Positions 1-27,930 of a stretch of 44,476 nucleotides of DNA are shown piece after piece. The stretch spans positions 1 through 44,476 of the IMG/VR virus record IMGVR_UViG_3300042863_001369; one strand, 5' to 3'. Both the position numbers and the translations under genes were made by a program. Under the pieces are notes generated by a model, which was given only the letters and a program-made list of their open reading frames with translations, was not told where the DNA came from and ran no database searches. The DNA is from a virus. Position 1 is the stretch's first letter, and every line of letters begins with the position of its first letter.

Positions 1-832
1 GAGTTAGTCCTGCAAATCCATAATCGGGATATGTTCTTGACACTTTACGTTTTTGACCTTCAATATCCACATAAACCCAACTTCTCATCGCCCTTAATGG
101 CCAATCCAAAACAGGGTTGTCTTTTGTGAAGAAAAAATAATCGCAAAGTTTTGTAACCGATTCAGGTAATGATATTGGACTAATTGCAATAACATCCAAA
201 CCATGTCCCTTAACCAATTTTATATTTTTTTCTAAAACATCAATCTTTTCTTGGGTGTCACAAAAAGTACTAATTAAAGCAACTTTCTTTTCCAGAACAG
301 GTTTTTTTCTATAGATACCAACTGAGTCGTCCCAATATCTGTTTGGCTCATTTGGGCCTGAGGGTGTTGTGGTATCAATATAATGTTCAACCAATTCAAT
401 ATCATAACCTAATTTTTTACCCCATTTTTCAAGAGCTTTCCAACTATCAATATAAAATCTCCAATTGTCACCAGGCCAACCGTGATATGCCCCATTTGAT
501 GGTGCTTGAATGTACATGTATCCACCTGGTTTTAAAACTCTACACATTTCGTGGAATGAAACCCAAAACATGTCGTCATGTTCAAAACAAGATGATGATA
601 TCACAATATCCATTTCATTATCAGAAATTGGAATATCATGAGAAACTCCAACAATATCAACATTTGGTCCTTCTTCCATGTCCAACCCAATATATTGACC
701 TTTTTCAAAAATTGGTTTCATTGTCCCGTTCACATCATATGAACCAACATCTAATATTTTTTTATTTTCAATATTTTTTTCACAATACTTGTGATAGAAT
801 TTTTCCGCGTTTACGTAGGCTGAGTGATGCAT
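1..832 (-). CDS. Methyltransferase type 11 fused to a glycosyltransferase-like domain (partial)
   Basis: This gene leaves the window at base 1, so its C-terminus is missing; 277 residues are visible. Residues 1-170 look like a class I SAM-dependent methyltransferase of the type 11 group. There is a motif I at DVGSYDVNG (about residues 28-36), an acidic strand end in YIGLDMEEGP, then a motif IV-like strand DIVISSSCFEH and the post-motif VLKPGGYMYI. After about residue 185 a new domain begins (KKVALISTFCDTQEK, later LCDYFFFTKDNP). It resembles the N-terminus of GT-A-like glycosyltransferases seen in phage and surface-glycan clusters. ATG at 832 is the only in-frame ATG near the start. The gene is divergent from the GT4-BAHT glycosyltransferase gene, 68 bp away. 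A role in making or decorating a glycan is inferred. The methyltransferase fold is well supported, its acceptor is unknown. Confidence 0.75.
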   Translation of the reverse strand, partial: MHHSAYVNAEKFYHKYCEKNIENKKILDVGSYDVNGTMKPIFEKGQYIGLDMEEGPNVDIVGVSHDIPISDNEMDIVISSSCFEHDDMFWVSFHEMCRVLKPGGYMYIQAPSNGAYHGWPGDNWRFYIDSWKALEKWGKKLGYDIELVEHYIDTTTPSGPNEPNRYWDDSVGIYRKKPVLEKKVALISTFCDTQEKIDVLEKNIKLVKGHGLDVIAISPISLPESVTKLCDYFFFTKDNPVLDWPLRAMRSWVYVDIEGQKRKVSRTYPDYGFAGLT

Positions 833-900: not shown

Positions 901-3177
901 ATGCTAAAAATATTCGGTCATGGTTCTTACATTGGGAACACAGGTTACAATCAACACACGAGGGATTTTTTCAGACATCTTTCAAAACACTCTCAAATAA
1001 AGTTCAGAAATTTCACGGTTGGAGATAGTTGGAAAGGAATGAGTGAGGAACCCCATAATGGTGAATATTATTTTAATGCGACCGACAGAAAATTACTTTA
1101 CCAACAAGTTTTATGGAACAACGATAGAACAAGAAGTGATTATAAAATGTATAATGACCCATCAAAAGAGTTTTCACCTGACTTAAATATTGTTTTGTGT
1201 GAGACCAACCATAATTTATTTTATGATGAATACTATGGTCCAAAGATTGCTTATAACGTCTGGGAATCAACATTACAGCCTGAAGTTTATTTCAATAAAT
1301 TAAAAGAGTTTGACGAGTTATGGGTTCCATCAAAATGGCAAAGAGATTGTACAATCTCACAAGGTTATGACCCGAATAAAATTAAAGTTGTTCCTGAAGG
1401 CGTGGATATCTATACATTTTTTCCTGAAGAAACATCACATGAATTAACATCGGACGGAAGATTCAAATTCTTTTTGGCTGGTAGATGGGATTATAGAAAA
1501 TCAATCAAAGAAATTATTGAAACATTCTTAAAAACTTTTGATAAGGATGAACCTGTTGATTTGATTATTTCTGTTGATAATCCTTTTTCAGGTGATGGAA
1601 TGAAAACAACCGAAGAAAGATTGGCACATTATGGTCTTGAAGATGAACGAATCAAAATCTTACATTTCCCACCAAGAGAAGATTATATTAAAATATTGAA
1701 ATCTTGTGATGCATTTGTTTCATGTGCCAGGTCTGAAGGTTGGAACTTACCTTTGATTGAAGCAATGGCTTGTGGTGTTCCATCAATATATTCAAATTGT
1801 TCGGGTCAGTTGGAATTTGCTGAAGGTAAAGGTATCCCTGTTAGTATCGTTGGTGAAAAACCAGTTGATGCAAGCACCTATAGCCATTTCAATGATTCTG
1901 TTGGAAATTATTATGAACCTGACTTCAAAGATTTAGGGAAAAAAATGTGGGAAGTGGTTACAAACCATTCAAAATATAAACAACTCGCCCTAGAAGAATC
2001 CGAAGAAATTAGATTTAAGTTCAATTGGGAAAAAGTTGCTGAAATTGGTGTCAACACAATAAATGAGTTTTTGGAAAAACATAAAACAACTGAAGATACG
2101 AACCAAGTTATTGTCTCTTACTTGGATGGTCCAAGAGTGGACATAAAAGGAAATGAAGGTAGAAAATACTTTGTTGAATTTATTGACGGTGATGGTAAGG
2201 TTAGATATTCAGACACTATTTCAAACAACATGTGGACAGCTTGTGGTATCAAATATTATGTTCCATGGACAATAAGAATTAACGGTGAAGTTGTTGATAA
2301 GTTTAATATTGAAAACAAAACGATTTTAATATCACTTGAATCCAAATCTGTTGGTGATACCATTGCTTGGGCGCCATATTCCATAGAACTAATGAAACAA
2401 AAAAATTGTAAGGTAATTTTAAGCACATTCCATAACGAATGGTTTGAAGGTTCTGAATCTTACAAAGATATAAAATTCATTAAACCAGGTGAGTCAATAT
2501 CTTGCGACGCAATTTATAAATTGGGTTGGTTCAGAGACAACAATAAAGGATGGAAAAACTTCAACTTGCATCCAAATCAACCGAATTTAATTCCATTACA
2601 AAAAACAGCATCAGACATTTTAGGTTTGGAATTTAACGAAGTAAATCATGGTTTGAATTTCAAACCAGGTAAAAGACCTATTGAAAATAAGTATGTTGTA
2701 TTTGGACCTCAATCAACCGCAGGTTGTAAAGAATGGTCTTTTGAATATTGGACAGAGCTAACCAAAATGGTAAGAAATCTCGGATATGAAGTGGTGATTT
2801 TATCCTTGGAAGAATATCACATAAAAGACACTATTTGTATCACAAGTCGTGATTGGAATGATGTGTTTTCATGTTTATATCACTCCGAGTTTTTCGTTGG
2901 TTTGAGTTCAGGTTTGTCTTGGGTCAATTGGACTTTGAATAAGAAAACCGTAATGATTGGTGGATTCAGTCAAGATGACCATGAATTCACAAACAATACC
3001 ATTAGAGTTTCAACTAATACTTGTATTAAATGTTGGAATGACCCAGTGTTAGTTTTTGATTCAGGTGATTGGGACTGGTGTCCTGTGTATAAAGGAACTG
3101 AAAGACAACATATTTGTCAGAAATCAATTACACCTCTTATGGTATTTGGAAAAATATTAGAGAATTTTAAACAATAA
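901..3177 (+). CDS. Two-domain glycosyltransferase: GT4 plus autotransporter-type O-heptosyltransferase (BAHT)
   Basis: A 758-residue protein and the only plus-strand gene in the window. Residues about 50-400 are a GT4/GT-B glycosyltransferase, with WVPSKW and PEGVD strands and the EX7E motif SEGWNLPLIEAMACG (E279, E287). Residues about 400-758 match the bacterial autotransporter O-heptosyltransferase family (TibC/Aah; GT9-like). They start with a beta-rich section (YLDGPRVDIKGN, YSDTISNN), then SLESKSVGDTIAWAPY, YKLGWF, LQKTASDILGLE and FVGLSSGLSWVNW. At the end come four cysteines, C708, C711, C727 and C739, around FDSGDWDWCPVYKGT; this is the iron-binding finger of the family. ATG 901 is preferred over a TTG at 853, which would add 16 low-complexity residues. 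It converges on the Ser/Thr-rich fibre gene. Protein O-glycosylation is inferred from the family; donor sugar and target are unknown. Confidence 0.85.
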   Translation: MLKIFGHGSYIGNTGYNQHTRDFFRHLSKHSQIKFRNFTVGDSWKGMSEEPHNGEYYFNATDRKLLYQQVLWNNDRTRSDYKMYNDPSKEFSPDLNIVLCETNHNLFYDEYYGPKIAYNVWESTLQPEVYFNKLKEFDELWVPSKWQRDCTISQGYDPNKIKVVPEGVDIYTFFPEETSHELTSDGRFKFFLAGRWDYRKSIKEIIETFLKTFDKDEPVDLIISVDNPFSGDGMKTTEERLAHYGLEDERIKILHFPPREDYIKILKSCDAFVSCARSEGWNLPLIEAMACGVPSIYSNCSGQLEFAEGKGIPVSIVGEKPVDASTYSHFNDSVGNYYEPDFKDLGKKMWEVVTNHSKYKQLALEESEEIRFKFNWEKVAEIGVNTINEFLEKHKTTEDTNQVIVSYLDGPRVDIKGNEGRKYFVEFIDGDGKVRYSDTISNNMWTACGIKYYVPWTIRINGEVVDKFNIENKTILISLESKSVGDTIAWAPYSIELMKQKNCKVILSTFHNEWFEGSESYKDIKFIKPGESISCDAIYKLGWFRDNNKGWKNFNLHPNQPNLIPLQKTASDILGLEFNEVNHGLNFKPGKRPIENKYVVFGPQSTAGCKEWSFEYWTELTKMVRNLGYEVVILSLEEYHIKDTICITSRDWNDVFSCLYHSEFFVGLSSGLSWVNWTLNKKTVMIGGFSQDDHEFTNNTIRVSTNTCIKCWNDPVLVFDSGDWDWCPVYKGTERQHICQKSITPLMVFGKILENFKQ

Positions 3178-3184
3178 ATCCTTA

Positions 3185-3225
3185 TCTTGGATGGAATTGT
3201 CCTCTATGGAACAATAAGTCCAAGA
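3185..3225 (+). other. Two-tier hairpin in the 3' untranslated region
   Basis: A 41-nt segment starting 7 nt after the glycosyltransferase stop codon can fold into a two-stage stem. The outer arms are TCTTGGA (3185-3191) and TCCAAGA (3219-3225). The inner arms are ATTGTCC (3196-3202) and GGAACAAT (3208-3215, one bulged A), closing a 5-nt loop. It precedes the terminator and may protect the mRNA end or slow the polymerase. Function is unknown. Confidence 0.4.
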
Positions 3226-3239
3226 ACCATATCTACAAA

Positions 3240-3270
3240 AAAAAAATAACCCGTTTGGGTTATTTTTTTA
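3240..3270. terminator. Bidirectional intrinsic terminator between convergent genes
   Basis: Stem AATAACCC (3245-3252) and GGGTTATT (3257-3264) with a GTTT loop. It is flanked by an A run on one side and a T run on the other, so it has a U tract in both directions. It can end the plus-strand glycosyltransferase transcript and the long minus-strand fibre transcript, whose last stop is at 3376. The rest of 3178-3375 shows no gene. Confidence 0.85.
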
Positions 3271-3375
3271 CTCCAACTATTATAAATGTCTTTTGATTTT
3301 TTGTAATATGAACACACACAGTATTCATTACAATCATTTCATGGTCAATAAGGTTATGTCCATTCACAACACCAA

Positions 3376-6300
3376 CTATTGAGTACAATTAGTATACGCC
3401 TTAAAAGTGTAACTAATTTTTACGTCTCTCGCGTCAGGTAAATCACTTACATTAAAACCTAAAAGGAATAACACATTACAATCATCTAAAGTATCCTCAA
3501 CTGTAAAACCTAAATTAAAACACGAAGTGTATGAGTCATCGTTTTTAAAATAATCAGTACGAGTAGTCAAATTATTTGTGGTGAAAGCGGTAGTAACTAC
3601 CTCAGAACAAAGAAAATAATTTAAAGCAATATTTATCGCATTGGTTTCAGTTGCTCCTGAACAATATACAATACCACAGACCTCAATTTTGTCACCAACA
3701 CTTAAAATATATGGATTTGGTATTCCGCAATTAACATATCGTGTACTTAAGGTAGGACTGTTTTGGAGATTTCTCACATTAAGGTCATATGAACAAGAAT
3801 CCCAACCACATCGACTGTCCCCATACCAATAGTCTTCACTACTATTTGTTTCAGAATATGCAAAAGAATGTGAAGCTATTAACCATTTTGAACCCACAGT
3901 TATATTAGCCTGACCTCCTCCACCATCTGTTGCAACAATACAACTACCTTGAAAATTCATTGCTGTTGTTGAAGACATTACAAATACATTTTCATCGTAG
4001 ATAGTTAATGCTCCAGATGTTCCACTTGTTCCACTTGAACCATTAACACCACTTATACCGCTTGTTCCTGATGAACCATTAGTTCCGCTTGAACCTGAAG
4101 TACCTGATGAACCACTTGTTCCACTTGAGCCCGAGGCACCTGAAGAACCACTTGTTCCACTTGAGCCCGAGGCACCTGAAGAACCACTTGTTCCGCTTGA
4201 GCCAGATGAGCCGCTAGTCCCTGAAGAACCCGAAGTACCACTTGAACCTGAAGACCCACTAGTACCACTTGAACCTGAATCACCTGATGAACCGCTAGTC
4301 CCTGATGAACCGCTAGTCCCTGATGAGCCAGATGAACCTGAGGTTCCACTTGTTCCTGAAGAGCCTGAAGCACCTGATGAACCGCTTGTTCCTGATGAAC
4401 CGCTTGTTCCTGATGAACCACTTGTTCCTGAACTACCACTAGTACCTGATGAGCCAGATGAACCGCTAGTTCCCGATGAACCTGATGAACCTGATGAACC
4501 TGAAGCACCTGATGAACCAGATGAACCTGATGTTCCTGAACTACCACTTGAACCTGAGGTACCTGAAGAACCACTAGTTCCTGATGAGCCACTAGTTCCT
4601 GAAGAACCAGATGTTCCTGATGAGCCATTAGAACCCGAAGTACCGCTAGTTCCTGATGAACCTGAACTACCTGAAGTTCCTGAAGAGCCAGATGAACCAC
4701 TTGTACCCGAACTACCACTTGTTCCTGACGAACCTCTACATACACAATCTGTTGAAGTTATATCTGCGCTTCCACTAGTTACTTGCGGAGTTGTTATTGA
4801 GCAAACTTGTACGGTTTGACCAAACCCAAGAGTTAAACCTGAAGTACCACCAACACAACAATCGTCATAACTAATATTGGTCTCAACTTCCTCTGCTCTG
4901 ATACTCCATACATAACAAGTTAATCCGTCAATACCACTAGTTCCACTTGAACCTGAAGAACCACTAGTCCCTGAACTACCACTATTTCCTGAAGAGCCAC
5001 TAGTTCCTGATGAACCGCTAGTTCCCGATGAACCTGACGAACCGTTAGAACCCGAAGTACCGCTTGAACCTGATGTTCCTGAACTACCACTAGTCCCTGA
5101 AGAACCGTTAGAACCCGAAGTACCGCTTGAACCTGATGTTCCTGAACTACCACTAGTCCCTGAAGAACCGTTAGAACCCGAAGTACCGCTTGAACCTGAT
5201 GTTCCTGAACTACCACTAGTCCCTGATGAACCGTTAGAACCTGATGTTCCTGAAGACCCACTAGTTCCACTTGAGCCAGATGAACCACTTGTTCCTGAAG
5301 AACCACTTGAACCGCTAGTTCCACTTGAACCACTTGAACCACTAGTCCCTGATGAACCGTTAGAACCTGAAGTTCCGCTAGTTCCACTTGAGCCAGATGA
5401 ACCACTAGTTCCTGATGAACCAGAAGAACCACTAGTTCCTGATGAACCAGAAGAACCACTAGTTCCTGAAGAACCTGATGTTCCACTACTACCGCTTGTC
5501 CCTGACGAACCTGATGTTCCATTAATTATACCTAACGTAGTTTGACCATATGAATAGTGAGTTGTACCTTCGGTTACGAAAGTAATTGTATGTGATTGGT
5601 TTGATGTATTTGTAGATTGAACTTTAACTAATATCCTATCAGTAGTATTGATAGAAGAACCACTCTGAAATCCATCAGATAATACCATTGATGGATTTGG
5701 TGAATTTGTTGTTACAGGTACTGGGTCTGTTGAAAATAATAAAGTTTCAGTCCCACCTGTTGTTCTTGAATAAACTTCACAGAAAATATTAAAACTCGCA
5801 TTATTATTTTCTTTATATGCGTGTAAGAAGAAAGACCAAATTCCCGCAGGTATAGTTGATACATTTGGATAATTTGAAGGTGTTAAATAGGATTGAATAG
5901 TTGATGTTACACCATTCGCAATCGTAACAGTTACCGTTTGTTGAGCACCACTTGTTGGTATAGGTGAAAATTCTTTATAAGGCGTTTGTGTTACTGACTC
6001 ATTAAAATAATAAATAGCTCCACCTGAAATACCATTAACACCACTTGTTCCAGAAGTTCCAGAAGAACCACTAGTTCCACTTGAACCAGATGAACCTGAT
6101 GTTCCGCTTGTTCCCGATGAACCATTAGAACCTGAAGTTCCGCTTGTTCCACTTGAACCAGATGACCCACTAGTTCCTGAAGAACCACTAGTTCCTGAAG
6201 AACCACTTGAACCGCTAGTTCCACTTGAACCACTTGAACCTGAACTACCCGAAGTACCGCTTGAGCCAGATGAGCCTGAAGTTCCTGAACTACCCGAAGT

Positions 6301-9300
6301 ACCACTTGAACCTGATGAACCGTTAGAACCCGAAGTACCACTTGAACCTGATGTTCCTGAACTACCACTAGTTCCCGAAGAACCGCTTGAACCTGATGTT
6401 CCTGAACTGCCTGAAGTACCGCTTGAACCTGATGAACCACTATTCCCACTTGAACCTGAAGAGCCACTAGTTCCTGATGAACCACTTGTCCCTGAAGAGC
6501 CAGATGAACCGCTAGTTCCACTTGAACCTGAAGACCCACTAGTACCACTCGAACCTGAGTCACCTGATGAACCACTAGTCCCTGCTGAACCAGATGAACC
6601 ACTTGTACCCGAACTACCACTAATTCCTGATGAACCTGAAGAACCGTTAGTTCCACTTGAACCTGAAGAACCGTTAGTTCCACTTGAACCTGAAGAACCA
6701 CTTGTTCCTGATGAACCACTCTCTCCACTTGAACCTGAGGTTCCGCTGCTACCAGAATCACCCGGTGCTCCCTCAAGATTTATAGTCCAAACACAATACT
6801 GTGAATTACCGTTAAGTATTGATGTTATTTCAACAACAAACGCACCTGTTGTTGGGTTATACGATACTATATCACCAGTAAACAAATTATTAACATCGTA
6901 AGCAACCAAGATTCCTTGCCCTATAGTCATACTTAAATTAGTAGTTCCTGTGAAATATATTAAATTACCTATAGAATATGCCGAAAGAGTTAAACAAGTG
7001 TTTGATATTCCATTATATATTGGACTTACTCCTGAAGTCCCTGAACTACCACTTGTTCCACTTGAACCTGATATTCCTGAAGAACCACTTGTTCCGCTTG
7101 AGCCACTAGTTCCGCTTGAGCCAGAAGTCCCTGAAGAACCTGAACTACCGTCAGTTCCGCTTGAACCGCTAGTTCCTGAAGAGCCGCTAGCTCCCGAAGA
7201 ACCACTAGTTCCTGAAGAGCCGTTAGAACCTGAAGTTCCACTAGTACCACTTGAACCGCTAGTTCCTGAAGAACCACTAGCACCTGAACTACCACTTGTT
7301 CCGCTTGAACCAGAAGTTCCTGACGAACCACTTATTCCGCTTGAACCTGAAGTTCCCGACGAACCTGAACTACCACTAGTCCCTGAAGAACCGTTGGAAC
7401 CTGAAGTTCCCGAACTACCGTCAGTTCCGCTTGAACCGCTAGTCCCTGAAGAACCACTAGCACCTGAACTACCACTTGTTCCGCTTGAACCAGAAGTTCC
7501 TGACGAACCACTTATTCCGCTTGAACCTGAAGTTCCTGATGAGCCAGATGAACCGCTTGTACCCGAACTACCACTTGTTCCTGAAGAACCACTATTTCCA
7601 CTTGTCCCTGATGAACCACTTGTACCAGAAGAACCATCTGAACCCGAAGTACCACTTGAACCACTAGTTCCTGAAGAACCACTAGTTCCTGAAGAACCAC
7701 TAGTTCCTGAAGAACCACTTGTACCAGAAGAACCATCTGAACCCGAAGTACCACTTGAACCACTAGTTCCTGAAGAGCCACTTGAACCACTCGAACCTGA
7801 GGCACCTGAAGAACCACTAGTCCCACTTGAACCTGACGCTCCGCTAGTACCTGACGAGCCATCCACACCTGAAGTACCACTTGAGCCGTTAGTTCCTGAT
7901 GAACCAGAAGTTCCTGATGAACCAGAAGTTCCTGATGAACCGCTAGTACCTGACGAGCCATCCGCACCTGATGTACCACTTGAGCCGTTAGTTCCTGACG
8001 AACCAGAAGTTCCTGATGACCCACTTGAACCTGAGGTTCCGCTGCTACCAGAATTACCCGGTGCTCCCTCAAGATTTATAGTCCAAACACAATATTGCGA
8101 ATTACCGTTAAGTATTGATGTTATTTCAACAACAAATTCTCCTGTTGTTGGGTTATACGATGCGACATCGCCAGTGAACAAATTATTAACATCATAAGCA
8201 ACCAAGATTCCTTGCCCTACAGTTATACTTAAATTAGTTGTTCCTGTGAAATATATTAAATTACCTATAGAATACCCTGAAAGGGTTAAACAAGTGTTTG
8301 ATGTTCCATTATATATTGGACTTATCCCTGAACTACCACTTGAACCAGAAGTCCCTGAAGAACCTGAGCTACCATCCGAACCGCTAGTTCCTGATGAACC
8401 TGAGCTACCATCCGAACCACTTGAACCATCTGTACCTGAACTACCGCTTGACCCGTTTGTACCTGAGCTACCACTTGTTCCACTTGAACCATTAACACCA
8501 CTTATACCACTTGTTCCTGAACTACCGCTTGAACCTGAAGTTCCTGATGAACCACTTGTCCCTGATGAACCTGAAGTTCCAGATGAACCACTTGTCCCTG
8601 TACCACCTGTAAAATTGATTAAAACATTTCCACCACCTTGGTTAATAACCGTAGCACCTGAAAATGTCATACCTGTAACAGATGTTACAGTAACACCTGA
8701 TGTGGAATCATATACCGTTAAAGAACCTGAACCTGAAGTAATACCTGTAACATTAACAACACTTCCATCACTATTATTTAAAGTCAATGTTGAAGTACCG
8801 CTATTGTATGTTCCGCCAGTTATAGTTCCTGTGAATCCTGTAATTGTTACAGTACCACCCGTATTATTATATAAATCTAAAATTTGTGTACCCGAAAAAT
8901 ATGTACCACCTGTAATTTGAACATCACTTCCCGAAAATATTCTCCATCTTGCATCATTATGTGAAACACCATTAACCCCTTCAATTGTGCTTCCTGTCCA
9001 AGAATTGATAAAATCTTTACCAGCTTGAGAACGATTGTTTACAATAGTACTATACTCAGAAGTAGTAATAGCCGAACTACCAGTTAAACCTGTTACCGCA
9101 TTCCATAAAGTGTCATAGTTCGGAATTGTATATTGATAAACAGTATCTGTTTCTTGAACATAAACCTGCATACCTAATCTTCTTCTACCTGAAGATATAT
9201 TATCAGAGTTTAATGTAACAAAATCAGGTGAGAAAGCAGAACCAGTTCCTTTTGTAAAATTGATTGGAATAGTGTTTGCAGATAATTGAATGTTAGCAGG

Positions 9301-9468
9301 ATAAGTTGTTGCCGTCAACACTAAATCTAAATCACTTAAGTTATAAACTTCCATGTGTCCACCTGTCTGTAATACAGAAAAGTTAGTACCGAAAGTGCTA
9401 GTCCTTACAACACTAGTAGGTCCTGCTAATTGAGCCGAAGATAGGGGGTTTTTATATGGAAATGACAT
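3376..9468 (-). CDS. Giant collagen-like tail fibre with Gly-Ser-Ser/Gly-Thr-Ser repeats
   Basis: A 2030-residue fibre-type protein. Residues 1 to about 289 form a non-repetitive N-terminus, probably the virion attachment part, ending in Thr/Gly-rich beta strands. About 1,100 residues in five blocks (roughly 289-381, 469-812, 903-1146, 1316-1512, 1578-1818) are Gly-X-Y triplets, almost all GSS and GTS with occasional GSD, GSN, GAS or GIS. This is collagen-like but has no proline in the repeats. Four globular inserts separate the blocks: two near-identical ones (about 381-469 and 812-903), one Thr-rich (about 1146-1316), and one small Cys-rich (about 1512-1578). The last 210 residues form a Cys-rich C-terminal domain, probably the tip that binds the receptor. 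It is the last gene of the minus-strand run and converges on the BAHT-type glycosyltransferase gene. Fibre function is inferred from architecture and context. Confidence 0.85.
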   Translation of the reverse strand: MSFPYKNPLSSAQLAGPTSVVRTSTFGTNFSVLQTGGHMEVYNLSDLDLVLTATTYPANIQLSANTIPINFTKGTGSAFSPDFVTLNSDNISSGRRRLGMQVYVQETDTVYQYTIPNYDTLWNAVTGLTGSSAITTSEYSTIVNNRSQAGKDFINSWTGSTIEGVNGVSHNDARWRIFSGSDVQITGGTYFSGTQILDLYNNTGGTVTITGFTGTITGGTYNSGTSTLTLNNSDGSVVNVTGITSGSGSLTVYDSTSGVTVTSVTGMTFSGATVINQGGGNVLINFTGGTGTSGSSGTSGSSGTSGSSGTSGSSGSSGTSGISGVNGSSGTSGSSGTNGSSGSSGTDGSSGSDGSSGSSGTSGSDGSSGSSGTSGSSGSSGISPIYNGTSNTCLTLSGYSIGNLIYFTGTTNLSITVGQGILVAYDVNNLFTGDVASYNPTTGEFVVEITSILNGNSQYCVWTINLEGAPGNSGSSGTSGSSGSSGTSGSSGTNGSSGTSGADGSSGTSGSSGTSGSSGTSGSSGTNGSSGTSGVDGSSGTSGASGSSGTSGSSGASGSSGSSGSSGTSGSSGTSGSDGSSGTSGSSGTSGSSGTSGSSGTSGSSGTSGSDGSSGTSGSSGTSGNSGSSGTSGSSGTSGSSGSSGTSGSSGISGSSGTSGSSGTSGSSGASGSSGTSGSSGTDGSSGTSGSNGSSGTSGSSGSSGTSGSSGISGSSGTSGSSGTSGSSGASGSSGTSGSSGTSGTSGSNGSSGTSGSSGASGSSGTSGSSGTDGSSGSSGTSGSSGTSGSSGTSGSSGISGSSGTSGSSGTSGVSPIYNGISNTCLTLSAYSIGNLIYFTGTTNLSMTIGQGILVAYDVNNLFTGDIVSYNPTTGAFVVEITSILNGNSQYCVWTINLEGAPGDSGSSGTSGSSGESGSSGTSGSSGSSGTNGSSGSSGTNGSSGSSGISGSSGTSGSSGSAGTSGSSGDSGSSGTSGSSGSSGTSGSSGSSGTSGSSGTSGSSGSSGNSGSSGSSGTSGSSGTSGSSGSSGTSGSSGTSGSSGTSGSNGSSGSSGTSGSSGTSGSSGSSGTSGSSGSSGSSGTSGSSGSSGTSGSSGTSGSSGSSGTSGTSGSNGSSGTSGTSGSSGSSGTSGSSGTSGTSGVNGISGGAIYYFNESVTQTPYKEFSPIPTSGAQQTVTVTIANGVTSTIQSYLTPSNYPNVSTIPAGIWSFFLHAYKENNNASFNIFCEVYSRTTGGTETLLFSTDPVPVTTNSPNPSMVLSDGFQSGSSINTTDRILVKVQSTNTSNQSHTITFVTEGTTHYSYGQTTLGIINGTSGSSGTSGSSGTSGSSGTSGSSGSSGTSGSSGSSGTSGSSGSSGTSGTSGSNGSSGTSGSSGSSGTSGSSGSSGTSGSSGSSGTSGSSGTSGSNGSSGTSGSSGTSGSSGTSGSNGSSGTSGSSGTSGSSGTSGSNGSSGTSGSSGTSGSSGTSGSNGSSGSSGTSGSSGTSGSSGNSGSSGTSGSSGSSGTSGIDGLTCYVWSIRAEEVETNISYDDCCVGGTSGLTLGFGQTVQVCSITTPQVTSGSADITSTDCVCRGSSGTSGSSGTSGSSGSSGTSGSSGSSGTSGTSGSNGSSGTSGSSGTSGSSGTSGSSGTSGSSGSSGTSGSSGSSGASGSSGSSGSSGTSGSSGSSGTSGSSGTSGSSGTSGSSGTSGSSGASGSSGTSGTSGSSGSSGTSGSSGTSGSSGDSGSSGTSGSSGSSGTSGSSGTSGSSGSSGTSGSSGASGSSGTSGSSGASGSSGTSGSSGTSGSSGTNGSSGTSGISGVNGSSGTSGTSGALTIYDENVFVMSSTTAMNFQGSCIVATDGGGGQANITVGSKWLIASHSFAYSETNSSEDYWYGDSRCGWDSCSYDLNVRNLQNSPTLSTRYVNCGIPNPYILSVGDKIEVCGIVYCSGATETNAINIALNYFLCSEVVTTAFTTNNLTTRTDYFKNDDSYTSCFNLGFTVEDTLDDCNVLFLLGFNVSDLPDARDVKISYTFKAYTNCTQ
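5041..5229 (-). repeat. Three 63-bp tandem repeats inside the fibre gene
   Basis: The 63-bp unit beginning ACCGTTAGAACCCGAAG at 5041 recurs at 5104 and 5167 almost unchanged, and a diverging fourth copy starts at 5230. Each unit encodes 21 residues (seven Gly-X-Y triplets), so adding or losing units keeps frame and triplet register. Confidence 0.85.
6755..8330 (-). repeat. Duplicated insert domain of the fibre
   Basis: Two segments of about 280 bp (6755-7030 and 8045-8330) are nearly identical in DNA and protein. Each encodes an insert of about 90 residues running from SPIYNG to NLEGAPG, with differences such as SITV versus SMTI and GDVA versus GDIV. They are separated by about 1 kb of collagen-like repeats. 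This is a domain duplication within one fibre. Confidence 0.9.
7261..7535 (-). repeat. 180-bp period segmental duplication inside the fibre gene
   Basis: Bases 7261-7355 and 7441-7535 are nearly identical, a period of 180 bp (60 residues, 20 triplets). Similarity continues into the flanks, for example TCAGTTCCGCTTGAACCGCT near 7150 and 7420. This points to unequal recombination or polymerase slippage within the collagen-like tract. Confidence 0.75.
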
Positions 9469-9503: not shown

Positions 9504-10604
9504 TTATGATTTAGTATCACCTTTAACCCAGAAAGTCGTTGTTAATGGAGGTGAAGATGGTTCAGAACACAATTCATTCATCCACAACACTCTATATGTT
9601 CCAACAGGAATTGCACATCCACTTGGAACTACCACATTTACACCCGCATTTATAACATCAGGTACACCATTATCAATTATTGATGTTGAACATGCATTAC
9701 CTAATCCCACATCTAAAGTCATGTTGGTCATTGTTCCTCCAACACCAGATAAAGGTATCCAAACAGTATATGTATATTGAATTGATGGGTTCACTTGTGA
9801 TGTTGTCACAGGGATACTACTAAAACTATATTGATTTTGAGAACATCCATAAGAATCAACACCCGAACCTGAAGATTGTCGTATTGGACCATTCAATGTT
9901 GATACGTTTGTTATGAAATTACCAACAGACCCTGTCCAACCTGAGAATTTAGCATAAATTGCCATATCTGATGCGTAGTTTAGTCCCGCAGGTGTTCCAC
10001 TATTACCCCATCCAAAGAAGGATACCGCACCTGTATCATACATATATTGACCCAAATTATTCAATGATGTTGGGTCTTGAGGTTCAGGGAATAAATAAGC
10101 ACTGAACGCTGCCGGACTCGGTGTTGGAGTATTTGTAGGTGTTGAGGTATTTGTAGGCGTTGCAGTATTTGTAGGCGTCGGTGTTGGTGTTTGTCTTGTT
10201 GGTGTTACAGTTGGAGTTTGAGTTTGTGTTGGAGTTGTAGTATTTGTTGGTGTTGGGCTTGGAGATAATCCTGGTGTAGGTGTTATAGTAGGTGTTATAG
10301 TTGGTGTCGCAGTATTTGTTGGTGTAGGTGTAGGTGTTTGGTTTGTTGGAGTAATACTTGGTGTTGGAGTAGGTGTTGGAGTAATACATTCAACATTTAC
10401 AAGAACCCCATTCAACATTTCAGTTCTTGTTTGGTCTTCATAAACCAGTGTAGAACCCAAATAAACATTAAATGGACCTAAAGCGCTTGAATTAGATGTT
10501 AATCTGACAATATATGTTGAACAACCCGATACCGTTATTTGCTGTTCAATTTCATTATCACAACCAACAGCATTATTGGTAACGGTTATAGTGTATGTAG
10601 CCAT
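9504..10604 (-). CDS. Mucin-like virion protein with Pro-Thr-rich linker
   Basis: A 366-residue protein of unknown function, probably a fibre or virion decoration. Residues 1-75 form a small beta-rich domain with cysteines. Residues about 76-165 are a Pro-Thr/Ser linker ([12 protein letters not shown]-type repeats), much like O-glycosylated mucin or cellulosomal linkers. Residues about 166-366 form a C-terminal beta-rich domain with motifs such as [22 protein letters not shown] and YRVLWMNE. It sits between the small 91-residue gene and the collagen-like fibre gene in the same direction, only 35 bp from the latter. The linker is a second candidate substrate for the nearby O-glycosyltransferase. 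No family is recognised with confidence. Confidence 0.65.
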
Positions 10605-10995: not shown

Positions 10996-13134
10996 TTAAC
11001 AAGTTAAACACATTATATCATAGACAATTATTAATTCAACAATAATTTCTTGTCCGTTTAATGTATTGTCACCAGATTTAGTGTTAATAGTTATTTGATT
11101 ATTTAATGAATCAATTGTTACTCCTCCAACACCAGGAACAGTCAATAATAAATTTTTAACTGTATCATAGTATAAGTTATCACTTGGTGCGCTAACCAAT
11201 GTTGTACCTGTGAAGAAAGCATCGCTTGTTGTTAAACCTAATGGTTGTACACTCACATTAACACTAAATACTGCAGATATCAAATCACAATTTGTTCCAC
11301 CGCTAGTCAAATCGTTAAATCCTTCATTCAACATTTGAAGTAATCCATATTTTGTTTGTGATTGGATTACAAATTGTTCTCCACCCATAACATATGTTTG
11401 ATAAGAAACATATTGAGTTTGGCAATCTATATTTGTAGTTCTGCTTAATGAACACCCAATTGAATCAACAACTGTTAAACTATATGTTCCGGCAGTTAGT
11501 CCTGTTATTTGTATTTGTTGTGGATTACCCTGAACATTATTTGACCAATTGAAATTAAATGGTGGTGTGCCTGTAGATATTAGAGCAGTTAAAGTTCCGT
11601 CCGAACCATTACCACATGAAGTGCTGTATAATGTAAAATCTAACGGGTCACTTTCACTAACATAAACTTGTGTTGTTTGTGTACATCCTGTTGCATCTGT
11701 AACGGTAACAGTGTGTTGACCTGAAGAAACATTTGTAAATGTTATTGCCGAAAGTGTCGTGTTAAAAACATTTTGAATCCCATCTAACGAATAATTGAAT
11801 GGTGATTGCCCCCCATCTGTTTTTTCAACATAAACCGCACCATTACTTTGATTACAAGTTGTTCCTGTAATTTCAGTAGTAATTTCAAAAGAATTTGTTG
11901 CAAATAAAGTAATTTCATCCGTGTAAGAACATCCCGACGAATCTTGAATTACAACTGAATAAGTTCCTGTTGATAAATTACTAAATAATTGAGAAGTTTG
12001 ACTATTAACAATATTAAGTGTGTTTCCATTGGGATATATTAAGGTGTATGTATATGGTGAAACCCCTCCAGCAACTGAAACGGTTATTGAACCGTCGGTA
12101 CTTGAACATGTTGAACCTTGACTTGATATTGTAACTGAAGCAATCCCAAGTGGTGTTAGTAATGTTGTACTAACAACTATACTACAAAAAGCGGAATCTG
12201 TTACCGAAATTGAATAATCCCCCGCAGATAATCCTGAAATTGACCATGTTTGACCATATTGAATTTGAACATTACCTGTAGATGCAGAGTAATAATAAGG
12301 TGCAGTACCTCCAGTTATCTGAAGAGTTAAAACACCATCTGAAGAAAAACAAGTTGGTTGTGTCGCAGTAAACACACCAAACCCAAGAACATTAACATCA
12401 GTAACTACACCTGTTTGAGTTTGAGAACAACCCAAACTGTCTGTTACAACAACAGAATATGTCCCCGATGTTAATCCCGTAATACTACTTGTTGTGAACC
12501 CATTACTCCATAGATATGTGTAAGGTGCAACTCCTGTTTGTCCAGTTACAATAATTTTTCCAATTGGCGTTCCCCCGCAACTTGAATTTGGAACAACATA
12601 TAAACCATAATTAAAAGGTCCACTATCTTCCACAATAAAATCAGATGTCTTACCTGTACATCCCCCTAAATCTTGGGCTATCATATAATATGTTCCCGCA
12701 GTTAAATTGCCAAAAACTATGTTTGATGTATTAGTGTTTCCTGAATTTATGTATGTATTGTCGGACAAATATAAATAAAAATTTGTTGACGAATAATTTG
12801 AAGAAGATGTGCTCGTTACCGAACCATTATCCAAACCACATGTGGTATTTTGGACTGAAAGTACACTCGCACATACACCTGAAGAAACAGGGATGTTAAT
12901 ATAAAATTGTAAGTTTGTCGGTACGGTACTATCATTAACATTTACCGCATATGTATCAGCACTTAATGAAGTTCTGATAGATGGATTAGTTGTTACAACA
13001 TCAACACCCAAATTAGGTGATACCCATTGAACAGTATAGGGCGGTGTTCCTCCCGTTAGATATAATTCGACGGCACCAGAATTTGTATTCTGACAATCTC
13101 CCGTTATTATAATATTATAATTAAATGCCGACAT
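10996..13134 (-). CDS. SprB-repeat adhesin-like tail protein
   Basis: A 712-residue protein. Residues about 1-560 are made of roughly seven tandem Ig-like repeats of the SprB type. Typical unit features are a start like TCxxSDG, a middle GGTxPYxYxWS, then ITGLTSGTYSVVVTDSxGC at the end. The most regular units centre on LWSNGFTTSSITGLTSGTYS and NLSTGTYSVVIQDSSGC. Residues about 570-712 are a unique C-terminal domain beginning near YVMGGEQFV. SprB repeats are known from Bacteroidetes gliding-motility and surface adhesins. There is no signal peptide, so this is an intracellularly assembled phage part rather than a secreted host adhesin. It follows the 993-residue tail gene after 2 bp. A fibre or receptor-binding role is inferred. 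Confidence 0.75.
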   Translation of the reverse strand: MSAFNYNIIITGDCQNTNSGAVELYLTGGTPPYTVQWVSPNLGVDVVTTNPSIRTSLSADTYAVNVNDSTVPTNLQFYINIPVSSGVCASVLSVQNTTCGLDNGSVTSTSSSNYSSTNFYLYLSDNTYINSGNTNTSNIVFGNLTAGTYYMIAQDLGGCTGKTSDFIVEDSGPFNYGLYVVPNSSCGGTPIGKIIVTGQTGVAPYTYLWSNGFTTSSITGLTSGTYSVVVTDSLGCSQTQTGVVTDVNVLGFGVFTATQPTCFSSDGVLTLQITGGTAPYYYSASTGNVQIQYGQTWSISGLSAGDYSISVTDSAFCSIVVSTTLLTPLGIASVTISSQGSTCSSTDGSITVSVAGGVSPYTYTLIYPNGNTLNIVNSQTSQLFSNLSTGTYSVVIQDSSGCSYTDEITLFATNSFEITTEITGTTCNQSNGAVYVEKTDGGQSPFNYSLDGIQNVFNTTLSAITFTNVSSGQHTVTVTDATGCTQTTQVYVSESDPLDFTLYSTSCGNGSDGTLTALISTGTPPFNFNWSNNVQGNPQQIQITGLTAGTYSLTVVDSIGCSLSRTTNIDCQTQYVSYQTYVMGGEQFVIQSQTKYGLLQMLNEGFNDLTSGGTNCDLISAVFSVNVSVQPLGLTTSDAFFTGTTLVSAPSDNLYYDTVKNLLLTVPGVGGVTIDSLNNQITINTKSGDNTLNGQEIIVELIIVYDIMCLTC

Positions 13135-25615: not shown

Positions 25616-27454
25616 TTATGAAAAAGTAACTGATTGGAAGTTCTTAACAGAGATTCTAATGTCTTTGTTTGGGTATCTAACTTGATACACTTGAGATGGT
25701 TGTGCAAATATCGTATCATCAACAGGTCCAATCAATTTTGTTTCAGGGTTTGAGTATTCCATTGATGTTTCAGCCGATGAGTACTGTCCGCCAACCTCGT
25801 TAAATACATCTATATTCGTAACCGTCAAAACACCATTTGTATTTTGAATTAAACTTCTAATCTCAGAAAGATATACGTTTTGTCCAAGTTGTCTGATTTG
25901 AGGATTGAAGTATGTAGATACTTTATCCACCACACTTGAAATAACTTGACCTGAGTTTTGAGCAGAATCCAAAACGATTGAGATATCCAAACTTAAATCA
26001 ATAACCTCAGCAGTGAATATTGAAATGTAATCATTCATCATCCTGTAGTTTGATAAATAATTTGCAATATTTTGTTTCAATGTATTTGATACAATGTTTG
26101 TTAACTTACCTGAAGTATCATAAGACAAAATTTGAATTAAGATTTTGTTATCGTTTTCTGTAATTGATACTTTTGCAGGTGCTCCGAATTGAGCTGGCAT
26201 GTTTCTAATTAACGATTCATAATCTTGAACAGTCACCGCTCTTTTTTGAGCAGCAAAGTTAAATGAAACATAATTTCTAATTTCCTCCAATGATGGTATT
26301 CCCGCACCACCAACAGCTGCAGTTACGTTAACACATCTCAAAGAGTTCACAACCGATGAGTTTGTTGTTTCTGAAGGACCATTAACAAAGAAAGAAACCG
26401 TACCAATTTGATTAATAACGTTTGTTCCCAAGTTTGTCGCTAATCCACCACCGACTCTATACTGAATAAACAGTGTTGAGTTAGGTGTTAAAGTTGCCCC
26501 TAAAGATAAGTTGTTTGAATATTTTTGTAATTCTAATGTTGTACCTAAAGTTGTAAATTGATTCAATTGGTCTTGAGCGGTATTTGTTCCACCACCAAAT
26601 GTCATCTTTTTAAATCCTTCAGGTGTATATTCAGTGATAAATCTATCTTGTGTTTGAATGTATTTACCAACTTTGATACCTGGTTGGTCAGAAACTTTTG
26701 TAGGGTCTTCAACAAACACCCTATCTTCCGCCAACGCATCTACTTCATACCATCTGTTTTCTAAACCTAAAAATTCGGCAGTTGTTGGTGTGTTTGTATA
26801 GCTGGTACCATTTTTTAACAATACACTTGTGATACCTAAAACATTTTTTTCAGGTAAGAATAATTCAAAGAACGGCTTTACATCATTTGCATTTATAACT
26901 CTTTTGAATACTTTGGTAATACCATTTACAACCACTTCTCTTTTTGTAATTGTATAATTAACCAAAACATTGTTGGCATTAAAATTAGGTATTTTTAATC
27001 TATTCGGGAAACCTTGAGCATTGTATGGAGACGCAAAATCAATATCATAAACATTTTCAAAAACAATACCAGCACCTACCACTTGAGAACCTCTTGTCAA
27101 TGTTCCAAGATATCTTTCATCTTCTTTATCACCATAAGCAGGAACCGTAACTGAGAAATCAACCAAAGCAACTGAAGGTCTTTGACCCGGTAATTTCAAA
27201 CCATAAGTTCTTGCGATGTTATAAATTGAAGACCTTTGTTGTGCATATTGTAATACGGTTTCCTGAATACTTCTATCAATATTATAATGTAAGTTATCAG
27301 CAACCGCAGCATTTAAATCAAGGAATACAGAGAATACCGAAGCGTCATTAAAATCTTGAATTAAATCAGGATAATATGTTTTTGCGTAGTTTAAGAGCTC
27401 AGTTCTTATTGACTGATAATCCCTACTTGTATATGATATTCTATTATTTGCCAT
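25616..27454 (-). CDS. Baseplate wedge protein, T4 gp6-like
   Basis: A 612-residue protein of the T4 gp6/gpJ-like baseplate wedge family. The N-terminus has the family pattern: YTSRDYQSIRTELLNYAKTY, then DFNDASVFSVFLDLNAAVAD, HYNIDRSIQETVL and IARTYGLKLPGQRPS. The middle and end contain EEIRNYVSFNFAAQKRAVTVQDYESLI, typical of gp6/gpJ C-terminal halves. Length is close to T4 gp6 (about 660). gp6 forms the inner ring of the baseplate around the hub, together with gp25 and gp53. It follows the gp25-like gene by 5 bp, a common neighbour order. The upstream sequence is AT-rich without a clear Shine-Dalgarno site. Confidence 0.9.
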   Translation of the reverse strand: MANNRISYTSRDYQSIRTELLNYAKTYYPDLIQDFNDASVFSVFLDLNAAVADNLHYNIDRSIQETVLQYAQQRSSIYNIARTYGLKLPGQRPSVALVDFSVTVPAYGDKEDERYLGTLTRGSQVVGAGIVFENVYDIDFASPYNAQGFPNRLKIPNFNANNVLVNYTITKREVVVNGITKVFKRVINANDVKPFFELFLPEKNVLGITSVLLKNGTSYTNTPTTAEFLGLENRWYEVDALAEDRVFVEDPTKVSDQPGIKVGKYIQTQDRFITEYTPEGFKKMTFGGGTNTAQDQLNQFTTLGTTLELQKYSNNLSLGATLTPNSTLFIQYRVGGGLATNLGTNVINQIGTVSFFVNGPSETTNSSVVNSLRCVNVTAAVGGAGIPSLEEIRNYVSFNFAAQKRAVTVQDYESLIRNMPAQFGAPAKVSITENDNKILIQILSYDTSGKLTNIVSNTLKQNIANYLSNYRMMNDYISIFTAEVIDLSLDISIVLDSAQNSGQVISSVVDKVSTYFNPQIRQLGQNVYLSEIRSLIQNTNGVLTVTNIDVFNEVGGQYSSAETSMEYSNPETKLIGPVDDTIFAQPSQVYQVRYPNKDIRISVKNFQSVTFS

Positions 27455-27459
27455 CTTAT

Positions 27460-27930
27460 TTAAATATTGATAATTACAAAATCACTTTGCCCAAATGTAG
27501 AACCATTGGTTGAGTAATCTATTCTTATTTTTGCAGTATATTCTGAAGTTCCTTTACCAGGGAATCTGTAAATTGATGATTCACTACTTCCAACTAAATT
27601 TTGACCTGTCGCAATATCAACTTCTTCTTGTGGGTCTGCCGGTGTAATACTTAAACTATTTACTAATAAATTCGGCATAAAGTTTTCAATCGCATCCCTA
27701 ATATCCGATTCAATCGCATTGAATGTTAGTCCATCAAACGGTTCAAAAAGAAATTCATACAATCTTGTACCAAATTGCGGTAAAAAATATCTTGAACCTT
27801 TTCTAGTTAATAACAAATGAATGAGGTCAGCTTTAATTTCTTGTGATTGAAATTCAGTTAATTCCAAATAATCACCCCTTCTGGAATCCCTAAAGGGGAA
27901 ATTTAAACCGTATGTTACTCCATTAGCCAT
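27460..27930 (-). CDS. Baseplate wedge protein, gp25-like (GPW/gp25 family)
   Basis: A 156-residue protein of the GPW_gp25 family, homologous to T4 gp25, P2 gpW and T6SS TssE. Visible hallmarks are the central QSQEIKADLIHLLLTRKGSRYFLPQFGTRLYEFLFEP, where family members conserve R-G-x-R-x-x-x-P-x-F-G-(S/T)-x-L, followed by the helix IESDIRDAIENFMPNL. gp25 starts sheath assembly at the baseplate and binds gp6. The gene overlaps the DUF5522-like gene by 8 bp at its start and precedes gp6 by 5 bp. Confidence 0.93.
   Translation of the reverse strand: MANGVTYGLNFPFRDSRRGDYLELTEFQSQEIKADLIHLLLTRKGSRYFLPQFGTRLYEFLFEPFDGLTFNAIESDIRDAIENFMPNLLVNSLSITPADPQEEVDIATGQNLVGSSESSIYRFPGKGTSEYTAKIRIDYSTNGSTFGQSDFVIINI

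What the first reader, a model, noticed from the sequence alone, without database searches (positions are those of the whole stretch)
901..9468. Candidate self-contained O-glycosylation system for a phage collagen-like fibre
A BAHT-type O-glycosyltransferase gene converges directly on a gene for a fibre with about 1,100 residues of GSS/GTS triplets. BAHT enzymes act on Ser-rich repeats of surface adhesins, and Thr/Ser glycosylation is known to stabilise proline-poor collagen helices in some organisms. The fibre repeats lack proline, so sugar could replace it as the stabiliser. A sugar coat could also hide the fibre or bind host lectins. A truncated methyltransferase-glycosyltransferase beside it could cap or extend the glycan.
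Basis: inference. Interest (0 to 1): 0.85.

Follow-up and report, generated by a model that had tools for sequence, protein, structure and literature searches.

The report
Phage sugar-transferase paired with serine-rich fibre
A bacterial virus carries, side by side, a very long Gly-Ser/Thr-Ser fibre and an enzyme of a kind known to put sugars on serine-rich surface proteins, and the same enzyme-plus-repeat pairing recurs in many other phages and in ordinary bacteria, which suggests an unrecognised way of coating a repeat protein with sugar.

Summary
Window 901-3177 (+) encodes a GT4 domain fused to a TibC/AAH-type (BAHT-like) O-glycosyltransferase: TIGR04414 201.4 bits (cut-off 200), TibC best PDB match by sequence and by fold, catalytic Asp and all four iron-finger Cys kept. 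It converges across a bidirectional terminator on a 2,030-aa fibre with 378 uninterrupted Gly-X-Y triplets (687 Ser/Thr, 2 Pro). Of 49 viral contigs chosen only for the repeat DNA, 22 encode a BAHT-like domain, against 0 of 38 random contigs and 0 of 30 with proline-type collagen fibres (size-matched 16/41 vs 0/58, p=9e-8). Unexpectedly, bacteria show the same pairing. Sister enzymes sit within 1.2 kb of small secreted or lipoprotein GTS/GSS-repeat genes at 12 of 15 loci, whereas the TibC-type branch sits by AIDA-type autotransporters (0 of 11). The tree separates the branches at 100/100. Best reading: a distinct BAHT-like clade whose acceptor is the G-S/T-S repeat, here a tail fibre. Not shown: glycosylation itself, or the donor (the ADP-contact Arg is lost; GmhA in only 2 of 43 records). 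'Self-contained' and 'sugar replaces proline' are unsupported. Some BAHT-bearing phages show proline-rich collagen beside the enzyme instead.

The parts
901..3177 (+). GT4 + BAHT-like two-domain glycosyltransferase, 758 aa (ORF opens at 853)
   Evidence: dN/dS about 0.08-0.12 against relatives
901..2079 (+). N-terminal GT4 (GT-B, retaining type) domain
   Evidence: Pfam Glycos_transf_1 3.5e-16; phrog_2170 glycosyltransferase 1e-29
2083..3174 (+). C-terminal BAHT-like domain; D486, T606, K610, W674 and C708/C711/C727/C739 match TibC D110, T226, K230, W305 and the four iron-finger Cys; V655 stands where TibC has R286
   Evidence: TibC residues from PMC4358343
3240..3269 (.). bidirectional intrinsic terminator between the convergent genes (AAAAAAATAACCC GTTT GGGTTATTTTTTT)
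   Evidence: sequence; read by eye, not listed by the consensus scan
3376..9468 (-). fibre, 2,030 aa, proposed acceptor
   Evidence: Pfam Collagen 1e-149; PHROG tail fibre
8320..8598 (-). triplet array 1 (31 triplets)
7024..8067 (-). triplet array 2 (116 triplets)
6025..6771 (-). triplet array 3 (83 triplets)
4918..5520 (-). triplet array 4 (67 triplets)
4006..4734 (-). triplet array 5 (81 triplets)
2..832 (-). methyltransferase gene cut by the record's end; complete in the longer record (L122 9417-10874), followed there by a hexapeptide acyltransferase and an FkbM-type methyltransferase: possible glycan-tailoring genes
9504..10604 (-). protein with a mucin-like Thr/Pro-rich stretch (about 90 residues), an alternative acceptor next to the fibre
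   Evidence: sequence

Best explanation
The 901-3177 gene encodes a cytoplasmic protein O-glycosyltransferase of a distinct, BAHT-like clade whose acceptor is the Gly-Ser/Thr-Ser triplet repeat. During infection its BAHT-like domain transfers a sugar from a nucleotide donor, probably supplied by the host and possibly ADP-heptose, to Ser of the repeats of the neighbouring tail fibre before assembly. The fused GT4 domain is then placed to add a second sugar, and neighbouring methyl- and acyltransferases may tailor the glycan. Shown: the domains, key residues, fold, purifying selection, and genetic linkage of this clade to the repeat in phages and in bacteria. Inferred: that the repeat is the acceptor, the donor, the order of sugars, the tailoring, and any benefit such as a stiff, hydrated, protease-resistant fibre.
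For: Family and fold: TIGR04414 201.4 bits; TibC the best PDB match by sequence (8e-32) and by predicted fold (Foldseek 2e-22, TM 0.80 over TibC). D110, T226, K230, W305 and the iron-finger Cys equivalents are all kept. dN/dS about 0.1. Linkage in phages: 22/49 repeat-selected contigs vs 0/38 random and 0/30 proline-collagen contigs; size-matched 16/41 vs 0/58, p=9e-8; 20 of 23 window-type BAHT contigs of at least 25 kb carry the repeat; Microcystis phage Mel-JY01 has all 12 repeat matches of its 190-kb genome within 10 kb of its BAHT-like gene; a 735-kb phage has repeats about 4 kb away. Linkage in bacteria: 12/15 clade-A loci within 1.2 kb of G[ST][STN] repeats vs 0/11 autotransporter-type loci; the strict repeat occurs at only 1-3 places in genomes of 1-9 Mb and in most of the 13 positive genomes one of these lies at the BAHT-like gene. 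Tree splits the two branches at 100/100. TibC itself modifies Ser, not Thr (PMC4358343), and Y in this fibre is Ser in 344 of 378 triplets.
Against: No biochemical evidence. BAHT-like genes are missing from 27/49 repeat-bearing contigs and 24/26 DnaB relatives, many of them fragments. In 11 of 21 fully flanked viral BAHT loci only proline-rich GXY collagen is seen within 10 kb, so in phages the link may be to collagen-like fibres in general. LR756504 has the enzyme but no repeat. Y-position Ser purity does not differ with BAHT presence (p=0.18). R286, which contacts the adenine in TibC, is V here and variable in clade A. Within-contig closeness alone is only moderately significant (16/22 within 10 kb, about 11 expected, p=0.006).
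Confidence: 0.72

Rival explanations
1. The enzyme glycosylates a virion protein other than the triplet arrays, for example the mucin-like Thr/Pro-rich protein 9504-10604 or the SprB-repeat protein 10996-13134.
For: Both are adjacent Ser/Thr-rich structural candidates; in some relatives the fibre beside the enzyme is proline-rich, not Ser/Thr-rich.
Against: Bacterial clade-A partners share only the G-S/T-S repeat with the phage fibres, not PT-rich or SprB segments; TibC modifies Ser rather than Thr.
Confidence: 0.1
2. The enzyme acts on the host surface (LPS core, or a host GTS/GSS lipoprotein) to change receptors during infection; its place beside the fibre reflects a gene-exchange hotspot.
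For: GT9 enzymes include LPS heptosyltransferases; some bacteria carry G-S/T-S lipoproteins beside sister enzymes; the region holds many glycan genes in relatives.
Against: The domain is TibC-like with the iron finger; the LPS heptosyltransferase I model scores far below its cut-off in sister phage proteins (26-32 bits vs 185). A hotspot alone does not explain absence beside proline-type fibres or the pairing in bacterial chromosomes.
Confidence: 0.1
3. Shared ancestry only: both genes are inherited together in a few lineages of large aquatic phages, without functional link.
For: The window's close relatives share synteny; control contigs differ in lineage and habitat; within-contig closeness is only moderate.
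Against: Phage and bacterial sequences interleave in the tree with at least five label changes while the repeat partner persists; partners in bacteria are unrelated proteins apart from the repeat; fusion partners of the BAHT-like domain differ (open frames of 363 to 1,527 aa).
Confidence: 0.08

Closest known systems
BAHT family: TibC and AAH with AIDA-I/TibA autotransporters (TIGR04414 with TIGR04415 repeats; eLife 2014 PMC4358343)
   Same: Fold, catalytic Asp110, Thr226/Lys230/Trp305 and iron-finger Cys; enzyme encoded beside a Ser-rich repeat protein
   Different: Forms a separate clade (100/100); TIGR04414 scores 201-317 against about 650-663 for the classical branch; partner is a G-S/T-S repeat without TIGR04415; Arg286 not kept; thumb residues not kept in the window protein; fused to GT4 in this phage
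Mycobacteriophage virion glycosylation (Freeman et al. 2023, cited in PMC12619734)
   Same: Phage-encoded glycosyltransferase thought to decorate a structural protein
   Different: There capsid and tail-tube subunits carry glycans at their C-termini; different targets; enzymes not compared by sequence here
Glycosylated collagen-like proteins of other systems (mimivirus collagen with its modifying enzymes, PMC9546862, title and abstract only; Bacillus BclA, from own knowledge)
   Same: Sugar on Gly-X-Y repeats
   Different: Mimivirus modifies hydroxylysine with other enzymes; BclA repeats are GPT (own knowledge); this fibre's arrays are nearly free of Pro and Lys

Membership tests
BAHT (TIGR04414) autotransporter heptosyltransferase | score above the curated family cut-off | tested here: met
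   201.4 vs 200 bits, barely; sister phage enzymes 224-317
BAHT (TIGR04414) autotransporter heptosyltransferase | TibC-like fold | tested here: met
   AlphaFold2 pLDDT 80.6 from 15 sequences; Foldseek TM 0.80 over TibC; the Cys-rich segment 711-736 is of low confidence
BAHT (TIGR04414) autotransporter heptosyltransferase | catalytic base D110 and T226, K230, W305 | tested here: met
   D486, T606, K610, W674
BAHT (TIGR04414) autotransporter heptosyltransferase | R286 (adenine contact) | tested here: not met
   V655; R in 12/12 classical but only 11/50 of the sister clade
BAHT (TIGR04414) autotransporter heptosyltransferase | four-Cys iron finger | tested here: met
   C708, C711, C727, C739
BAHT (TIGR04414) autotransporter heptosyltransferase | dodecamer through hydrophobic thumb F265/V266 and F368 | tested here: inconclusive
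   thumb residues differ or are gapped, F368 is H in the window protein; assembly itself not testable
BAHT (TIGR04414) autotransporter heptosyltransferase | adjacent autotransporter with TIGR04415 target repeats | tested here: not met
   fibre has no TIGR04415 hit; the two classical partners scanned do
BAHT (TIGR04414) autotransporter heptosyltransferase | ADP-heptose donor and Ser acceptor in vitro | not testable with these tools
   needs enzyme assay
Collagen triple helix | uninterrupted Gly every third residue | tested here: met
   378 triplets in five arrays; Pfam Collagen 1e-149
Collagen triple helix | imino-acid (Pro/Hyp) content | tested here: not met
   2 Pro in 378 triplets
Collagen triple helix | triple-helical structure | not testable with these tools
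   needs CD or structure; the repeat could form another extended structure

The most novel reading that the evidence does not exclude
A previously unrecognised glycosylation module shared by phages and bacteria: a sister clade of BAHT enzymes, which NCBIfam's model names autotransporter heptosyltransferases, whose real acceptor is the Gly-Ser/Thr-Ser triplet repeat. Bacteria use it on small surface lipoproteins and phages on giant proline-free collagen-like tail fibres, where the sugar may take over proline's stabilising role; the donor may not be ADP-heptose.
Probability: 0.55. Interest if true: 0.87.

Novelty: new variant of a known kind. Interest (0 to 1): 0.78.

Why it matters
If the pairing is enzyme and substrate, it adds a new acceptor class to a protein-glycosylation family known for autotransporters, explains the chemistry of a common phage fibre type (GSS/GTS), and predicts sugar-coated fibres in large aquatic phages, with consequences for adsorption and for how such fibres stay stable without proline. 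It also indicates that database names for this clade are misleading. The prediction is cheap to test, because the bacterial partner proteins are small and some occur in named Methylobacter and Methylomicrobium strains.

Tried and rejected
Y-position Ser purity as a mark of BAHT-bearing phages: no difference (p=0.18). Heptose-pathway gene gmhA as sign of self-supply: only 2 of 43 records, one above cut-off. Literature for phage TibC-like enzymes or GTS-repeat lipoproteins: nothing relevant in the open-licence library; a 2025 paper on Bacteroidota jumbo phages notes several glycosyltransferases but neither collagen nor heptosyltransferase. DnaB relatives as a lineage control gave little power because contigs end inside the repeat. 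The consensus terminator scan missed the terminator. The strict four-triplet DNA pattern missed GTA-mixed repeats, and longest-ORF gene calls hid some overprinted repeat genes, so a six-frame search with relaxed triplets was used.

Full report
Observation. The window is a piece of a virus record and is 100% identical to positions 30034-74509 of a 101,887-base record. The fibre gene 3376-9468 (-) encodes 2,030 aa with five uninterrupted Gly-X-Y arrays, 378 triplets in all: GSS 190 and GTS 128, 687 Ser/Thr, 2 Pro and 14 charged residues. X alternates between Ser (205) and Thr (137) while Y is Ser 344 times and Thr once. Ser codons of both kinds (TCN, AGY) are used, so the register is kept at protein level. 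The gene lies in a tail region (baseplate wedge genes at 25616-27930). The gene 901-3177 (+) converges on it across a bidirectional terminator at 3240-3269.

The enzyme. Pfam finds GT4 and GT9 domains. NCBIfam TIGR04414 (hepto_Aah_TibC) matches the C-terminal half at 201.4 bits, just above its cut-off of 200. phmmer against the PDB gives TibC at 8e-32. AlphaFold2 from 15 own relatives (pLDDT 80.6) finds TibC first in the PDB (E 2e-22, TM 0.80 over TibC), then GT4 enzymes. With residue roles taken from the TibC paper (PMC4358343), D110, T226, K230, W305 and all four iron-finger cysteines are kept; R286, which contacts the adenine of ADP-heptose, is V655 here. dN/dS against relatives is about 0.08-0.12, so the gene is under purifying selection.

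Phage comparisons. A search with the whole protein found 36 viral loci. Of their 35 distinct records tested, 20 carry the repeat, and these 20 are among the 23 records of at least 25 kb; several others are cut at or near the fibre. Distant BAHT-like proteins with other fusion partners also sit by the repeat: Mel-JY01, where all repeat matches of the 190-kb genome lie within 10 kb of the enzyme; LR756501; and G060 and G054, convergent again. LR756504 is an exception without repeats.

Unbiased test from the repeat side. Eighty loci were drawn from viral contigs by the DNA pattern of GSSGTSGSSG alone. Of 49 such contigs of at least 24 kb, 22 encode the domain, against 0 of 38 contigs drawn by an arbitrary 15-mer and 0 of 30 contigs with genuine proline-containing collagen ORFs. 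Restricted to sizes up to 110 kb the counts are 16/41 and 0/58, p = 9e-8. Controls are not matched for host or phage lineage.

Unbiased test from the enzyme side. An alignment search gave at least 569 viral stretches with the domain. Of the 21 returned loci with 8 kb or more on both sides, 9 have the Ser/Thr repeat and 11 others have proline-rich Gly-X-Y repeats, so 20 of 21 have a collagen-like protein nearby, against 2 of 80 (shorter) random loci. Several of these are near-identical viruses, and one of the proline-rich contigs also carries GSS/GTS repeats. The association in phages is therefore with collagen-like fibres, and among repeat-selected contigs it is with the Ser/Thr kind and not the proline kind.

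Bacteria. One scan of 84,980 species genomes by conserved peptides returned 14 loci, chosen without reference to repeats. Neighbouring genes encode small proteins with signal-peptide or lipobox-like starts (read by eye) and GTSGTSGTS or GSSGSSGSS repeats, often among housekeeping-like genes. In 13 of the 14 genomes the strict repeat occurs at only a few places, and in most of them one of these lies at the enzyme. Further searches of 201 and 300 genomes from the orders of two of them added members of both kinds. Of 15 clade-A loci, 12 have the repeat within 1.2 kb (one more has a GTA-mixed repeat in the adjacent gene, one has it at about 6 kb, one none). Of 11 lower-scoring loci none has it; most lie beside very large proteins, and the two partners tested carry the known TIGR04415 target repeats. 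Fisher p = 5e-5.

Tree. Sixty-two domains split 100/100 into an autotransporter-linked branch with TibC and a repeat-linked branch in which phage and bacterial sequences interleave. Phage members L413-L433 were picked because of the repeat; the others were not. The root is assumed to lie between the branches. TIGR04414 scores are 649-663 for two of the first branch and 201-317 for members of the second.

Mechanism and limits. I propose that clade-A enzymes glycosylate Ser of the triplet repeat, in this phage on the tail fibre, and that the fused GT4 domain and nearby methyl- and acyltransferases extend or cap the glycan. Linkage, domains, residues and fold are shown; acceptor, donor and benefit are inferred. 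TibC uses Ser and ADP-D,D-heptose. Loss of R286 leaves the donor open, and gmhA is found in only 2 of 43 BAHT-bearing records, so the system is not self-contained for donor synthesis on present evidence. Whether sugar stabilises a proline-free helix cannot be decided by sequence, and it is not certain that the arrays form a triple helix at all. Y-position Ser purity does not separate BAHT-bearing from other repeat phages, and many repeat phages show no BAHT-like gene on the available contig.

Classification. It works like a BAHT but should not be filed as an autotransporter heptosyltransferase: the partner repeat and R286 were tested and not met. It is best called a BAHT-like sister clade, a new variant of a known kind.

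Noticed in passing
9504-10604 (-): Mucin-like Thr/Pro-rich stretch ([13 protein letters not shown]...) in a protein beside the fibre; a second possible glycosylation target.
   Followed up: no
10996-13134 (-): Virion-region protein with five SprB repeats (Pfam 2e-25), repeats known from Bacteroidota gliding adhesins; hints at a Bacteroidota host.
   Followed up: no
L007 12262-13158 and several other relatives: A second, shorter BAHT-like protein (about 295 aa, lacking the N-terminal barrel, TIGR04414 187 bits) follows the main enzyme in many relatives.
   Followed up: partly
L006 12361-15320 and neighbours of other BAHT loci: Islands beside the fibre, in some relatives between fibre and tail-sheath-like genes, holding sugar-nucleotide epimerase/dehydratase-like, aminotransferase- and acyltransferase-like genes and FkbM methyltransferases.
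   Followed up: partly
L572 8527-8742 and 11255-11881: Two GSS/GTS lipoprotein-like genes flank one bacterial BAHT-like gene on both sides, the only places with the strict repeat in a 3.8-Mb genome.
   Followed up: yes
fibre residues about 384-466 and 816-898 (window 3376-9468): Two near-identical 80-residue domains (SPIYNGTSNTCLTL...) interrupt the triplet arrays.
   Followed up: no
many IMG/VR contigs (for example L003, L007, L033): Assemblies end inside the GSS/GTS repeat, so co-occurrence counts on contigs are underestimates.
   Followed up: partly
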